Positions 4,678-27,568 of a DNA stretch of 36,300 bases are shown in pieces. Every line of letters begins with the position of its first letter. The stretch's first letter is position 1. Below the pieces are notes generated by a model. That model searched no databases and was not told the DNA's origin. It saw only the letters and a list, made by a program, of their open reading frames with translations. The stretch lies in the NCBI GenBank assembly GCA_030526045.1, contig JAUNDN010000026.1:1-36300 (forward strand), in the 5' to 3' direction. A program made the translations under genes and the position numbers. The stretch is from Bacillota bacterium. GTDB lineage: Bacteria; Bacillota; Clostridia; Lachnospirales; Lachnospiraceae.

Positions 4678-6087
4678 GTGGTACATCAGTATAAGAATAA
4701 CGGTTACAATATTGTCCTTGATGTCAACAGTGGCTCCGTTCATGTGGTAGATGATGTGGTGTATGATATCATTCCGATTGTAGAGGAAGGACTAAATACC
4801 GATACAGATACGGAAGCAATCGAGGGCAGTGTCCTTGAGAAACTGAAGGGGAAGTATGAGCCTTCCGATATAAAGGATGCTTTTGAACAGGTGATTGAGC
4901 TTAAGGAGGCAGGACAGCTCTACGCGCCTGATATTTATGAAAATTATATTATTGATTTCAAAAAGAGAGAGACAGTGGTGAAGGCGCTCTGCCTGCATAT
5001 TGCCCATGACTGCAATCTGGCATGTAAATATTGCTTTGCGGAAGAAGGAGAGTATCACGGCAGACGAGCGCTAATGAGTTATGAGGTCGGTAAGAAGGCT
5101 TTGGACTTTCTTGTCAAGAATTCAGGAAACCGTGTGAATCTGGAGGTTGATTTCTTCGGAGGAGAGCCGCTGATGAACTGGCAGGTTGTGAAGGATCTGG
5201 TGGCATACGGCAGGAGCCTGGAGGAGCCTTATCATAAGAAATTCCGGTTTACACTGACTACAAATGGTGTTCTGTTAAACGATGAGGTCCTGGAATTTGC
5301 AAACAAAGAAATGTCCAACATTGTTCTCAGTATTGATGGCAGGAAGGAGATCCATGACCTGATGCGTCCCTTTAGGAAGGGGCAGGGAAGCTATGATCTG
5401 ATCGTTCCCAAGTTCCAGAAGGTTGCTAAGAGCCGTGATCAGATGAACTATTATGTGCGGGGAACCTTTACCAGAAACAATCTGGATTTTTCCAGGGATG
5501 TGATGCATCTGGCGGATCTGGGCTTTCGGCAGATATCTGTGGAGCCGGTAGTGGCGCAGCCCACAGATGATTACGCACTGCGGGAGGAGGATATTCCTAC
5601 ATTGCTTGAGGAATATGACCGTTTGGCAGTTGAACTTTTGAATAGAAGAAAAGAAGGAAAAGGTGTTAATTTTTTCCATTTTATGATAGACTTGGAGGGC
5701 GGACCCTGTGTAGCCAAACGCTTATCCGGCTGTGGCTCGGGAACGGAATATCTGGCAGTCACACCATGGGGAGACTTGTATCCCTGCCATCAGTTTGTTG
5801 GCAAGGAGGAGTTCCTGATGGGAAATGTGGATGAGGGTATTACACGAACCGATATCAGGGATGAATTTAAGACCTGTAATGTTTATGCCAAGGAAAAGTG
5901 CAGAAACTGTTTTGCAAAATTCTATTGCAGCGGAGGATGTGCTGCCAATTCCTATAACTTCCATGGGCATATCAACGATGCTTATGATCTTGGCTGTGAA
6001 TTACAGAGAAAACGTGTTGAATGTGCAATTATGATAAAAGCAGCATTGGCTGATTTAGAAGGAGAAGAAGAAAATGAAGAAGAATAA
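4678..6087 (+). CDS. scfB: SCIFF thioether maturase, radical SAM/SPASM protein
   Basis: This 469-residue radical SAM enzyme installs the thioether bond in the SCIFF peptide. An N-terminal RiPP-recognition-like region (~1-95) precedes the radical SAM core with Cys112-x3-Cys116-x2-Cys119 (C-N-L-A-C-K-Y-C). FFGGEPLMNW follows as the GGE SAM-binding motif. A C-terminal SPASM domain holds many cysteines, including CGSGTEYLAVTPWGDLYPCH and CRNCFAKFYCSGGC, as needed for two extra [4Fe-4S] clusters. Length and cysteine layout agree with the CteB/ScfB family. The GTG start at 4678 has an AGGAAGGA site. Its end overlaps secDF by 14 nt, suggesting translational coupling. Confidence 0.95.
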   Translation: MVHQYKNNGYNIVLDVNSGSVHVVDDVVYDIIPIVEEGLNTDTDTEAIEGSVLEKLKGKYEPSDIKDAFEQVIELKEAGQLYAPDIYENYIIDFKKRETVVKALCLHIAHDCNLACKYCFAEEGEYHGRRALMSYEVGKKALDFLVKNSGNRVNLEVDFFGGEPLMNWQVVKDLVAYGRSLEEPYHKKFRFTLTTNGVLLNDEVLEFANKEMSNIVLSIDGRKEIHDLMRPFRKGQGSYDLIVPKFQKVAKSRDQMNYYVRGTFTRNNLDFSRDVMHLADLGFRQISVEPVVAQPTDDYALREEDIPTLLEEYDRLAVELLNRRKEGKGVNFFHFMIDLEGGPCVAKRLSGCGSGTEYLAVTPWGDLYPCHQFVGKEEFLMGNVDEGITRTDIRDEFKTCNVYAKEKCRNCFAKFYCSGGCAANSYNFHGHINDAYDLGCELQRKRVECAIMIKAALADLEGEEENEEE

Positions 6088-24926: not shown

Positions 24927-25272
24927 ACAAACGTTTATAACAATGAAGATTAGCGTAACTGTACCTACTGGATATAATGCTTCCCATTTAAAGGCTGATA
25001 ATGTACAGGTTCGTTATTCACCAAAGGCAACATATGAATTAGGTGTATGCGAAGTAGTGTCCAGTAGTGGTAATAAGGTAAGAGTATATGACAAAGAAAG
25101 AAGCATTTGTAATCTTATAGTGGAGAGAAATAAAGTAGAGGTGCAGAATTTTCAGACTGCGATTAAGGAATATATGTCTTTGAAGGATAAAAAGATTTCT
25201 AGGTTGATTGAATATGCAGAAAAACTTGGTATTCGAGATGAAGTAATGAAATATGTGGAGGTGCTTGTATGA
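24927..25272 (+). pseudogene. 5'-truncated AbiEi-like antitoxin (type IV toxin-antitoxin)
   Basis: Residues from the ATG at 24943 (MKISVTVPTGYNASHLK) match the C-terminal half of AbiEi-family antitoxins. Other family features are VYDKERSICNLI, the conserved KDKKISRLIEYAEKLGI and the end VMKYVEVLV. Intact AbiEi proteins are ~195-200 residues with an N-terminal winged helix; here only ~115 residues remain. Family-like sequence (Q-T-F-I-T) extends upstream of 24943 to a stop at 24925-24927, so the start was lost by deletion. A perfect AAAGGAGG site now serves ATG 24924, which reads only nine codons in another frame. The 109-residue piece could still be made from ATG 24943. Confidence 0.75.
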
Positions 25273-25525: not shown

Positions 25526-25592
25526 CAGCATATCTTTTCTGACAGTATTTCCCAATCCTAATAGCATTATGAACGTAGAAAAGGTGGCCTCT

Positions 25593-26429
25593 ATGATTAC
25601 CGGAACTATAAAAAATGTTGTAAAATTGCAGTTTCTCGAAAATAAGTGGCAACAAAAGAAGAATGATATTAATGCGAAAAAGCCGATTAAGGAAATGACA
25701 CAGGAAGAGAGAATGCTTGCTGATTTTCAGAAGCAGGTTGAAAAAGAACGCGAGAGCAATTTACATGCAGATCTATACAACAAATTGAAGTCTGGCGGAA
25801 AACTAACATCCGAAGAAATATCATATCTTGAACAGAATGATCCGGAGGCACTTAGAAAATACCGCGAAGATCAGGCCGAGAAAAAAGCCTATGAGCGAGA
25901 ACTTAAGAACTGTAAGACCAAGGATGAAGTAGATCGAGTAAAAATGAATAAGCTTGGCAATTTTGCTGCGCAGGCGAAAAAGATTACTACTGATCCATAT
26001 ATCCCTTTAGACAAAAAAGTTGAGCTTATGAATCAACTTAATGATAAATTATGCCGAGTAAATCAGGCGCATATGGAATTTCTTGATTCACAGCAATATA
26101 GAGATATGCCGACTGAAGCTGAGCTTTTAAAAGAAAGAACAGAGGAGATTACCGAGATGCAAGAGGATATGCAGGAAGAGGTAATGGATTCTATTTCAGA
26201 TGCTGACGGTGATATCGAAGAAAAAGTTGCTTCAGATAATGAAAGCGAAGAATTAGCTGAAACGAATTTAGTATCCAAAGAAAAACGAATCCCAAGAAAA
26301 GAAACCGAGAACGCCGATAATAACACTGACTTAGATGATGGAATGAACTTTGAAACGTTAAGTGAAGCTATACTTAGATTTGTTTCTTCTGCAGGAAGTC
26401 GTGAAAGTAAGATAGATATTAGTTTGTAA
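25593..26429 (+). CDS. Acidic coiled-coil protein of unknown function
   Basis: This ~278-residue soluble, highly charged protein is rich in Glu and Lys with long predicted helices. It recalls a family of uncharacterised clostridial proteins with the pattern GGKLTSEEISYLEQNDPEALRKYRE followed by LKNCKTKDEVDRVKMNKLGNF and a Q-Y-R-D-M-P element. The C-terminal third (~195-255) is strongly acidic and low in complexity. ATG 25593 has AAGGTGG five bases upstream; the in-frame ATG at 25569 has no ribosome site. No membrane segment, signal peptide or catalytic motif is seen. Function and any link to neighbouring mobile-type genes are unknown. Confidence 0.7.
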   Translation: MITGTIKNVVKLQFLENKWQQKKNDINAKKPIKEMTQEERMLADFQKQVEKERESNLHADLYNKLKSGGKLTSEEISYLEQNDPEALRKYREDQAEKKAYERELKNCKTKDEVDRVKMNKLGNFAAQAKKITTDPYIPLDKKVELMNQLNDKLCRVNQAHMEFLDSQQYRDMPTEAELLKERTEEITEMQEDMQEEVMDSISDADGDIEEKVASDNESEELAETNLVSKEKRIPRKETENADNNTDLDDGMNFETLSEAILRFVSSAGSRESKIDISL

Positions 26430-26635: not shown

Positions 26636-26779
26636 ATGGTTTTGTCCACAGCTTCATTAAAAGAATTGTATAGAATCGAAATTTTTGGAGACCGTGTTGC
26701 ATTATTACTAAGAAGTCCGTTGACAAAACAGGTTATTTATCATACTATAATTGTACAAAAAGTAATTGATTTTTGGTGA
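26636..26779 (+). CDS. Possible small protein, 47 residues
   Basis: ATG 26636 follows AAGGGGGAT and encodes 47 residues with alternating hydrophobic and charged character (LYRIEIFGDRVALLLRSPLT), ending V-I-D-F-W. Tight spacing with the preceding small frame is operon-like. No homologue is recognised; it may be a gene remnant. Confidence 0.35.
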   Translation: MVLSTASLKELYRIEIFGDRVALLLRSPLTKQVIYHTIIVQKVIDFW

Positions 26780-26805: not shown

Positions 26806-26816
26806 TATAATATTAT
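26806..26816 (+). promoter_or_regulatory. -10 element(s) of the tandem-hairpin RNA
   Basis: A perfect TATAAT (26806-26811) overlaps into TATTAT (26811-26816) immediately before the first RNA repeat at 26818. No good -35 box is placed 16-18 bp upstream, so the strength and exact start are uncertain. Confidence 0.45.
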
Positions 26817-26817
26817 G

Positions 26818-26934
26818 GTCGGGTATGAGACTTGAAACCATGCCGAGTGGTCGGAATGGAGACCTTAAACCTATTCGAGTGTAGAGTAAACTACTAAAAA
26901 TCAAAAGAGGAGTGACTTGGTCATTCCTCTTTTT
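26818..26934 (+). ncRNA. Tandem-hairpin RNA, candidate type III-like RNA antitoxin
   Basis: Two directly adjacent 32-nt units (26818-26849, 26850-26881) share GTCGG at the start, GAGAC...AAACC in the middle and CGAGTG at the end. Each folds into a 7-bp stem with one bulged G. The outer two and innermost pairs are the same. The four pairs between change from G-C, U-G, A-U, U-A in unit 1 to A-U, A-U, U-A, G-U in unit 2, so pairing is kept although sequence is not. The loop (AGAC-Y-U-K-AAAC) is nearly constant. A short third hairpin GTAG-AGTAAA-CTAC (26881-26894) repeats part of the loop sequence. An intrinsic terminator ends the RNA. No known riboswitch consensus fits. The antitoxin role is inferred from layout with the next gene. 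Confidence 0.6.
26903..26934 (+). terminator. Intrinsic terminator between the RNA and the downstream gene
   Basis: A 14-bp stem (AAAAGAGGAGTGAC with GTCATTCCTCTTTT, one G-U pair, loop TTG) with a run of five T at its end. It lies 6 nt before the AGGAGG ribosome site of the next gene, so that gene depends on read-through. Confidence 0.85.
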
Positions 26935-26950
26935 CTACATAGGAGGTTTA

Positions 26951-27568
26951 ATGTGTACTGTAAGTTTTAAAGAAAGAGTAAAGAATGAGGCGATAGCAAA
27001 TGCAAGCTTATATAAATCCAATTTTATAGATTATGAATATTTGGTATGTTCAGAAGCATTTAATAATGGCTATCATGTCATAAAATCCGATAAGGGTAAT
27101 TATCTGCATCTTATTGGAATACATACCACATTATCTGCAGAAGATTTTTTTGATAAGTGTAATGAGGGTACATTGGGTGAAGCGGATTTTGATTTTGTAA
27201 AACCAAACAAATCTGAAAAATCCGTAAAAGGTTCTGTGAGAGAAAAAATTACAGTTTTGCCAGATATGGTGCGATTATTTGGACAGAGATTGATTGCTGA
27301 GGATAATTTCAAGAAGAATAAAGTAGAGTGTGCATTTGCAACATCTGATAATAGCTGTACCTTGGGATTTGCTGTTTCTGGTCGTCCGAAATCTTTGCTA
27401 AAAGGAAATGAGTTGGAATCAAGAAAGGCAAAGCCTGTTGATTTGATTTTTCGCAAACGAAGAAGTTGTGTAGGGACATATGATGAACTTATTTTCGGAA
27501 ATAAGGCGGATGTCGCGAAGTATAAAGAGAAGATAATGGATTACATTTCAAAAGATTTTATGGAGTAA
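26951..27568 (+). CDS. PBECR4-like (BECR-fold nuclease/toxin-like) protein
   Basis: This 205-residue protein starts at ATG 26951 with a perfect AGGAGG five bases upstream (spacer TTTA). It is soluble and has no signal peptide. The segment NYLHLIGIHTTLSAEDFFDKCNEGTL, here split as NYLHLIGIHTTL and SAEDFFDKCNEGTL, resembles the H-L-x-G-I plus FF-x-K-C-x-x-G-T-L pattern I recall for PBECR4 proteins, a BECR-superfamily ribonuclease-like group from mobile elements. Downstream CAFATSDNSCTLGFAV and GRPKSLLKG fit the same picture. Candidate active-site residues (His57 and later Arg/Lys/Ser) are inferred only. It is separated from a tandem-hairpin RNA by a terminator, the order seen in type III toxin-antitoxin loci. 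It does not look like ToxN by eye. Confidence 0.55.
   Translation: MCTVSFKERVKNEAIANASLYKSNFIDYEYLVCSEAFNNGYHVIKSDKGNYLHLIGIHTTLSAEDFFDKCNEGTLGEADFDFVKPNKSEKSVKGSVREKITVLPDMVRLFGQRLIAEDNFKKNKVECAFATSDNSCTLGFAVSGRPKSLLKGNELESRKAKPVDLIFRKRRSCVGTYDELIFGNKADVAKYKEKIMDYISKDFME

What the first reader, a model, noticed from the sequence alone, without database searches (positions are those of the whole stretch)
26806..27568. Possible new RNA-antitoxin-type locus: tandem covarying hairpins, terminator and BECR-like gene
Seen: a TATAAT, then two abutting 32-nt repeats, a third partial hairpin, a 14-bp intrinsic terminator, then AGGAGG and a 205-codon gene. The two repeats keep loops and flanks (GTCGG, GAGAC, AAACC, CGAGTG). 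Their stems differ at four pairs, all still paired, so selection is on RNA structure. Known: type III toxin-antitoxin loci (ToxIN, CptIN, TenpIN) have exactly this order, and their toxins share a BECR-like ribonuclease fold. Inferred: the RNA neutralises the encoded protein. The protein looks PBECR4-like rather than ToxN-like, so this may be a distinct type III-like family.
Basis: partly seen in the sequence, partly recalled or inferred. Interest (0 to 1): 0.87.

Follow-up and report, generated by a model that had tools for sequence, protein, structure and literature searches.

The report
RNA-guarded PBECR4 toxin with phage decoys
A gut-bacterium gene for a predicted RNA-cutting toxin is preceded by small repeated RNA knots that probably hold it in check, and phages carry the same RNA knots without the toxin, probably to disarm it.

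Summary
In detail: two abutting 32-nt units (26817-26880), a half-unit, a 14-bp terminator, then a 205-codon gene. The gene is Pfam PBECR4 (E 5.8e-16), not ToxN-like. Of 38 homologue loci found by protein search, 35 carry the same RNA upstream; two of the others are contig-cut, one is a distant relative with another RNA. Forty-five distinct units support an H-type pseudoknot: 75 cells changed on both sides against 18.6 in shuffles. Other PBECR4 clades follow other RNAs: a second tandem pseudoknot, or the Rfam family drum; RNA class follows the protein tree. The RNA can survive a short or lost gene; no intact window-type gene was seen without it. Eight viral contigs carry the window-type array and no PBECR4 anywhere on the record, one array between tRNA genes. 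Best reading: a type III-like toxin-antitoxin family with an unrelated toxin, countered by phage-borne solitary antitoxin RNAs. Toxicity, binding and RNA cleavage are untested.

The parts
26720..26748 (+). likely promoter TTGACA-N17-TACTAT for RNA and gene
   Evidence: 1 found, 1.6 expected by chance; promoter-like pairs upstream of 18 of 36 class A loci
26817..26848 (+). RNA unit 1 (32 nt), H-type pseudoknot: S1 26817-26820/26829-26832, S2 26822-26827/26839-26844, linker to 26848
26849..26880 (+). RNA unit 2 (32 nt), same pseudoknot: S1 26849-26852/26861-26864, S2 26854-26859/26871-26876, linker to 26880
26881..26902 (+). terminal half-unit: S1 hairpin GTAG/CTAC and A-rich tail, no S2
26903..26934 (+). 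intrinsic terminator, 14-bp stem and T run, between RNA and gene
   Evidence: sequence; fold
26941..26946 (+). ribosome-binding site AGGAGG
   Evidence: sequence
26951..27568 (+). PBECR4-family protein, 205 aa, predicted RNase toxin; invariant His53 and Gly56
   Evidence: Pfam PF18813 E 5.8e-16; His and Gly 62 of 62 aligned proteins

Best explanation
This is a type III-like RNA-protein toxin-antitoxin locus. A transcript starting upstream carries two 32-nt H-type pseudoknots and a half-unit and mostly ends at the intrinsic terminator, so RNA is made in excess; read-through makes a little PBECR4 RNase. Each pseudoknot (or the array, perhaps cut by the RNase in its A-rich joints) binds PBECR4 and covers its active site. 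When a phage stops host transcription or turns over RNA, the RNA runs out, the freed RNase cleaves RNA and the infection aborts. Phages answer by carrying the same array without the gene, keeping the RNase locked. Shown here: anatomy, pseudoknot covariation, close linkage, clade-matched RNA classes, one-sided decay, solitary arrays on viral contigs. Inferred: promoter use, toxicity, binding, neutralisation, RNA cleavage, abortive infection, the decoy role.
For: 35 of 38 protein-first loci have the units. Pseudoknot on 45 distinct units: 94.5% of cells paired vs 80.8% shuffled, 75 vs 18.6 cells changed on both sides, covariation 0.503 vs 0.211, 0 of 500 shuffles as high; slid versions 34-53% paired. 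S2 alone, which the finding pattern constrains least, 92.1% vs 76.0%. A further unit outside the finding pattern (L032) has S1 changed on both sides at pair 2-15 and forms all 11 pairs. Array model R1 in 280 genomes of the family: 8 hits, 6 directly upstream of PBECR4. Tree of 62 PBECR4 proteins: class A RNA one clade (100/98), class B one clade (99/87); all labels 5 changes, the minimum, shuffled mean 26.2. RNA is kept where the gene's frame is short or lacks its start (L025, L035, L036, L037, L038, L040, L041) or the gene is lost or cut short (L126, L127, L148). Arrays on 8 viral contigs without PBECR4 over the whole record; phage terminase, portal, PhoH, head protease, holin and tape-measure genes on five of them, one array between tRNA-Asn and tRNA-Asp; 13 of their 16 units keep at least 6 of 7 S2 pairs; reversed control pattern 0 hits.
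Against: No experiment; no toxicity, binding, processing or expression data. Units were collected with a pattern that fixes three S1 pairs (GTC/GAC), so S1 is independently supported mainly by pair 1-16 and the L032 unit. One shuffle measure, the number of pairs with any change on both sides, is not exceptional (6 against 5.0, 184 of 500 shuffles). The outer S2 pair fails in 12 of 45 units. Two of 8 array hits in whole genomes lack PBECR4, and R1 was built with the window's and some other hits' own sequences. Ten of 23 drum hits have no PBECR4 beside them. Three of 16 solitary phage units keep only 3-4 of 7 S2 pairs. The viral records are fragments, so a gene elsewhere in the virus is not excluded.
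Confidence: 0.8

Rival explanations
1. The RNA is a cis-acting leader: PBECR4 or another factor binds the pseudoknots and controls read-through at the terminator (autoregulation), without neutralising the protein.
For: RNA lies immediately 5' of the gene, ends in a terminator, and is co-oriented in the classes examined.
Against: Arrays persist on viral contigs with no PBECR4 gene to control and at host loci where the gene is gone. Units are tandem and covary as free-standing pseudoknots.
Confidence: 0.08
2. The RNA is an activating cofactor or scaffold, PBECR4 being an RNA-dependent effector, and phage copies are competitive decoys of an active complex rather than antitoxins.
For: Close pairing and clade-matched RNA; phage copies fit a decoy of either kind.
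Against: One-sided decay: RNA survives loss of the gene, and no intact class A gene was seen without RNA where upstream DNA was held, which fits an inhibitor better than a cofactor.
Confidence: 0.08
3. A member of an existing type III family (ToxIN, CptIN or TenpIN).
For: Same gene order and tandem pseudoknots.
Against: PBECR4 against ToxN profile probability 0.1-0.2% where two ToxN sets give 100%; PBECR4 profiles find no PDB chain at E 10 while a ToxN query finds ToxN and AbiQ entries; Pfam PF18813, not PF13958.
Confidence: 0.02

Closest known systems
Type III toxin-antitoxin systems ToxIN / CptIN / TenpIN (AbiQ)
   Same: Order of tandem short repeats, terminator, then toxin gene; repeats of 34-36 nt (ToxI) or 45 nt (CptI) forming H-type pseudoknots; very short first loop and A-rich long loop as in CptI (PMC5086642 and PMC4627078, passages).
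   Different: Toxin family: PBECR4 (predicted BECR-type RNase) against MazF/Kid-fold ToxN; no profile similarity. The window RNA matches no Rfam family.
AbiF / RCd22 (C. difficile type III-like system)
   Same: Non-coding RNA with two repeated motifs upstream of a toxic protein, neutralised by RNA-protein contact (PMC12373285, passages).
   Different: That toxin is an Abi_2/AbiD/F protein with structural links to Cas13 ancestors; the window protein matches only PBECR4 in Pfam and the RNA has no abiF match.
PBECR domains (Iyer et al. 2017)
   Same: Family name and predicted activity: metal-independent RNases of phages and mobile elements, five of six families with a helix histidine (PMC5512222, passages).
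   Different: The passages read suggest host or phage mRNA or crRNA as targets and say nothing of an upstream RNA partner; they do not describe the Pfam family PBECR4 by that name.
drum RNA, Rfam RF02958
   Same: Occupies the same place upstream of other PBECR4 genes.
   Different: 112-position model, not a short tandem repeat; the window RNA is not drum.
Phage RNA anti-CRISPRs (Racrs) and pseudo-ToxI phage escape
   Same: Solitary phage copy of a defence system's repeat RNA (PMC10651486, start of abstract in a listing; pseudo-ToxI in PMC5086642, passages).
   Different: Here the copied RNA is a predicted antitoxin of a family with no paper found in the library, and it occurs on metagenomic viral contigs, not as spontaneous escape mutants; function untested.

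Membership tests
Type III toxin-antitoxin (ToxIN/CptIN/TenpIN) | Tandem nucleotide repeats upstream of the toxin gene | tested here: met
   complete units in 35 of 38 protein-first loci, 1-3 each; spacing 32 or 33 nt in all multi-unit loci parsed but two, L033 34 and L034 35
Type III toxin-antitoxin (ToxIN/CptIN/TenpIN) | Rho-independent terminator between repeats and gene | tested here: met
   a loose script found a terminator-like hairpin in 35 of 36 class A loci; in the 36th, L019, a stem is seen by eye
Type III toxin-antitoxin (ToxIN/CptIN/TenpIN) | Repeat unit is an H-type pseudoknot | tested here: met
   covariation on 45 units plus one outside the pattern; three S1 pairs are fixed by the finding pattern; no 3D structure
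Type III toxin-antitoxin (ToxIN/CptIN/TenpIN) | Toxin homologous to ToxN/CptN/TenpN (MazF/Kid fold) | tested here: not met
   by sequence and profile; the fold itself was not modelled
Type III toxin-antitoxin (ToxIN/CptIN/TenpIN) | RNA neutralises a toxic endoRNase by direct binding | not testable with these tools
   needs bench work
Pfam PBECR4 (PF18813) | Match above the gathering score | tested here: met
   59.8 bits against 27; all 8 members of alignment A1 match
drum RNA (RF02958) | Window RNA matches the covariance model | tested here: not met
AbiF system | Abi_2 protein with abiF RNA motif | tested here: not met

The most novel reading that the evidence does not exclude
PBECR4 is a superfamily of RNA-neutralised toxins across Clostridia, partnered clade by clade with at least three RNA classes: the window's tandem pseudoknot, a second tandem pseudoknot, and drum RNA, an Rfam family that would thereby get a function as antitoxin. 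Phages carry solitary copies of these RNAs as RNA-only counter-defence, including an array set among tRNA genes of a large viral contig.
Probability: 0.6. Interest if true: 0.93.

Novelty: new variant of a known kind. Interest (0 to 1): 0.87.

Why it matters
[quoted passage not shown]), and suggest that phages keep RNA-only antitoxin decoys in natural genomes. The paper library held no hit for PBECR4 and none linking drum RNA to a protein; that library lacks most subscription papers, and the 2017 paper that I recall as describing drum was not held.

Tried and rejected
Known Rfam family for the window RNA: none at gathering score, only three weak unrelated matches at E up to 5. Plain tandem hairpins: single-sequence folding is unremarkable; the pseudoknot is supported instead. 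Close relatives of the window protein in the named phage and plasmid collections: no match by tblastn at E 0.001. Solitary drum RNA in IMG/VR by two exact patterns: 0 hits, although drum without PBECR4 occurs in phage-like places of genomes (L082, L093, L096). Sequence relation to ToxN: none. Dropped before counts: 8 chance regex matches, 4 class B units caught by the class A regex, unit 1 of L034 (longer third loop) and the duplicate loci L001 and L070; identical units were counted once, and one of the 45 is the relic unit L031:10357. Loci L002-L005 repeat the contigs of L013, L021, L022 and L029. In the tree proteins under 140 aa (L025, L038, L041) were left out. In one search two units of L059 with a longer S2 arm were left out of the 20 counted and two that agree over 25 nt were merged. 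L129 is the same place as L007. In one search the minus-strand loci were printed on the wrong strand; one search corrected this.

Full report
What is there. The window (contig 74 of a 2.68-Mb, 85-contig genome; G000) has at 26817-26880 two abutting 32-nt units, then a half-unit, a 14-bp terminator with a T run, a strong ribosome-binding site and a 205-codon gene.

The protein. It matches Pfam PBECR4, E 5.8e-16 over residues 17-143. NCBIfam gives only a match far under its cut-off, PADLOC none, PHROGs one weak unnamed family. Profiles of it find no PDB chain at E 10, whereas a ToxN protein of the same genome finds ToxN and AbiQ entries. hhalign gives 0.1-0.2% between each of four PBECR4 classes and ToxN, and 100% between two ToxN sets; between PBECR4 classes it gives 99.3% (A-B, C-D), 92.2% (B-C) and 84.7% (A-C), but only 16.3% (A-D) and 30.2% (B-D). 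So it is not a ToxN relative by sequence. Iyer et al. 2017 (PMC5512222, passages) predict PBECR domains to be metal-independent RNases, five of six families with a helix histidine; His53 and Gly56 are invariant in 62 of 62 aligned PBECR4 proteins here.

The RNA goes with the protein. Searching by protein only, 35 loci in bacterial genomes and 3 in viral contigs were found. Of these 38, 35 have at least one complete unit within 320 nt upstream; L039 and L042 begin 117 and 71 nt before the match, and L043 is a distant relative with a different RNA. Loci carry one to three units, then usually the half-unit, and a terminator. Searching by RNA, the array model R1 hit 8 of 280 genomes of the family; 6 hits lie directly upstream of PBECR4, one ends at a region with a transposase-like gene and one has an insertion in the terminator with no PBECR4 nearby. 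R1 was built with some of these sequences, so their being found is partly by construction; their position is not.

Structure. On 45 distinct 29-nt unit cores, S1 (1-4 with 13-16) and S2 (5-11 with 23-29) form an H-type pseudoknot with no nucleotide in loop 1, one in the junction and six in the A-rich loop 3. Cells paired 94.5% (shuffled 80.8%), cells changed on both sides 75 (18.6), further pair types 23 (16.4), covariation 0.503 (0.211), each reached by 0 of 500 shuffles; the fifth measure, pairs with any double change, is 6 against 5.0 and is reached by 184. Slid versions pair 34-53%. The units were found with a pattern that fixes GTC/GAC, hence pairs 2-15, 3-14 and 4-13, so the fairer test is S2 alone: 92.1% against 76.0%, covariation 0.631 against 0.288. 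Pairs 9-25, 10-24 and 11-23 are kept in 45 of 45 with three or four pair types each, and 1-16 in 43 of 45 with six. Stepping through the arrays for units outside the pattern gave one, in L032, with A-U at 2-15 and all 11 pairs formed. The outermost pair 5-29 fails in 12 of 45.

Other PBECR4 genes have other RNAs. Pfam searches gave PBECR4 in 29 of 391 genomes of the class and 51 of 280 of the family. Of the 30 loci fetched in the first, 20 were given to Rfam and 8 of these carry drum RNA (RF02958) directly upstream. Of the 19 new loci fetched in the second, 9 carry drum and the other 10 (one of them the place of L007 again) a second tandem RNA, class B, with units GUUG-S2-CAAC-A-rich-S2'. In 20 class B unit cores, S1 is largely set by the finding pattern; S2 pairs 8-22 and 9-21 hold in 20 of 20, 6-24 in 19, but 7-23 in only 11 and 5-25 in 9. 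From the drum side, 23 hits in 18 of 391 genomes: 12 lie directly upstream of a PBECR4 match, one more before what looks like a PBECR4 remnant, and 10 have no PBECR4 beside them, some in phage-like surroundings. Some PBECR4 loci (L055, L065-L067, L071-L073) have an upstream stretch that fits none of the three classes. On a tree of 62 PBECR4 proteins class A is one clade (100/98) and class B one clade (99/87); class C (drum) is one group but for L072, whose RNA looks drum-like by eye and was labelled apart; the four unclassed rows are scattered. The six labels together need 5 changes, the least possible, shuffled mean 26.2. Labels were set from the upstream RNA by pattern, Rfam or eye.

One-sided decay. 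Seven class A loci have an array before a gene whose open frame is short or lacks a start (L025, L035-L038, L040, L041), three have the array and no intact gene (L126, L127, and L148, where the start of a PBECR4-like frame soon meets a stop), and L031 holds a second, internally deleted copy. No intact class A gene without RNA was seen where upstream DNA was held. Antitoxin kept after toxin loss, and not the reverse, is what a toxin-antitoxin pair predicts; metagenome assembly errors may account for some short frames.

Solitary arrays on viral contigs. A two-unit pattern hit 12 IMG/VR contigs: three with PBECR4 (L045, L149, L153), L148 with the broken one, and eight with none (L147, L150, L151, L152, L154, L155, L156, L157; L154's stretch is identical to part of L157, so seven distinct arrays). 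A profile search of the whole records found no PBECR4 in these eight, nor in L148's and L159's, while the two control records (of L149 and L153) matched at 2e-71 and 1e-59; the records may be fragments. The same pattern reversed hit no contig. On five of the eight, tested genes match phage terminase, portal, PhoH, head protease, holin or tape-measure families; the one L150 protein tested matched none, and L151 and L154 were not tested. L150's array sits between tRNA-Asn (4870-4945) and tRNA-Asp (5049-5124) on a 129.5-kb contig. Of the 16 units, 13 keep at least 6 of 7 S2 pairs and 3 keep 3-4. One class B array also stands on a viral contig without PBECR4 (L159). With no PBECR4 gene beside it to control, the RNA should act in trans; the simplest use for a phage is to keep the host RNase bound. 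Phage pseudo-ToxI escape mutants (PMC5086642, passages) and RNA anti-CRISPRs (PMC10651486, start of abstract in the listing) are precedents.

Conclusion. [quoted passage not shown] That PBECR4 is toxic, cuts RNA, binds and is blocked by the pseudoknots, and that phage copies are decoys, are inferences. No paper in the searchable library names PBECR4, and the searches made found none that links drum RNA with a protein; papers outside it were not checked.

Noticed in passing
window 24943-25272 +: 109-aa ORF matching only the C-terminal half of AbiEi antitoxin models (PADLOC best E 8.7e-34); perhaps a relic of a type IV system next to this locus. No partner gene was looked for beyond.
   Followed up: no
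window 25569-26429 +: 286-aa ORF upstream of the RNA with no Pfam, NCBIfam or PADLOC match and only a PHROGs match at E 0.45.
   Followed up: no
G000 contig 6, 23092-23589 (locus L113): The same genome also carries a true ToxN-family gene (PF13958, E 1.2e-43).
   Followed up: partly
L015, L017, L018, L021: PBECR4 frames run on into extra C-terminal regions: about 300 aa in L015/L017/L018 and an HD-like region (by eye) in L021.
   Followed up: no
L082, L093, L096: drum RNA in prophage-like surroundings (by eye) without PBECR4, a possible parallel to the solitary class A arrays.
   Followed up: partly
L031 10357-10400: Relic of a second copy: unit 1 and part of unit 2 run straight into what looks like the 3' end of a PBECR4 reading frame.
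   Followed up: partly
L065-L067, L071-L073, L055: PBECR4 genes whose upstream stretch fits none of the three RNA classes; possibly further RNA classes or drum variants.
   Followed up: no
class B terminal units (e.g. L006, L049): Last unit of class B arrays has a purine-A mismatch in the middle of S2 while inner units mostly pair.
   Followed up: no
control genome Lactococcus lactis: The only one of 14 named control genomes with a PBECR4 match; its upstream sequence was not looked at.
   Followed up: no
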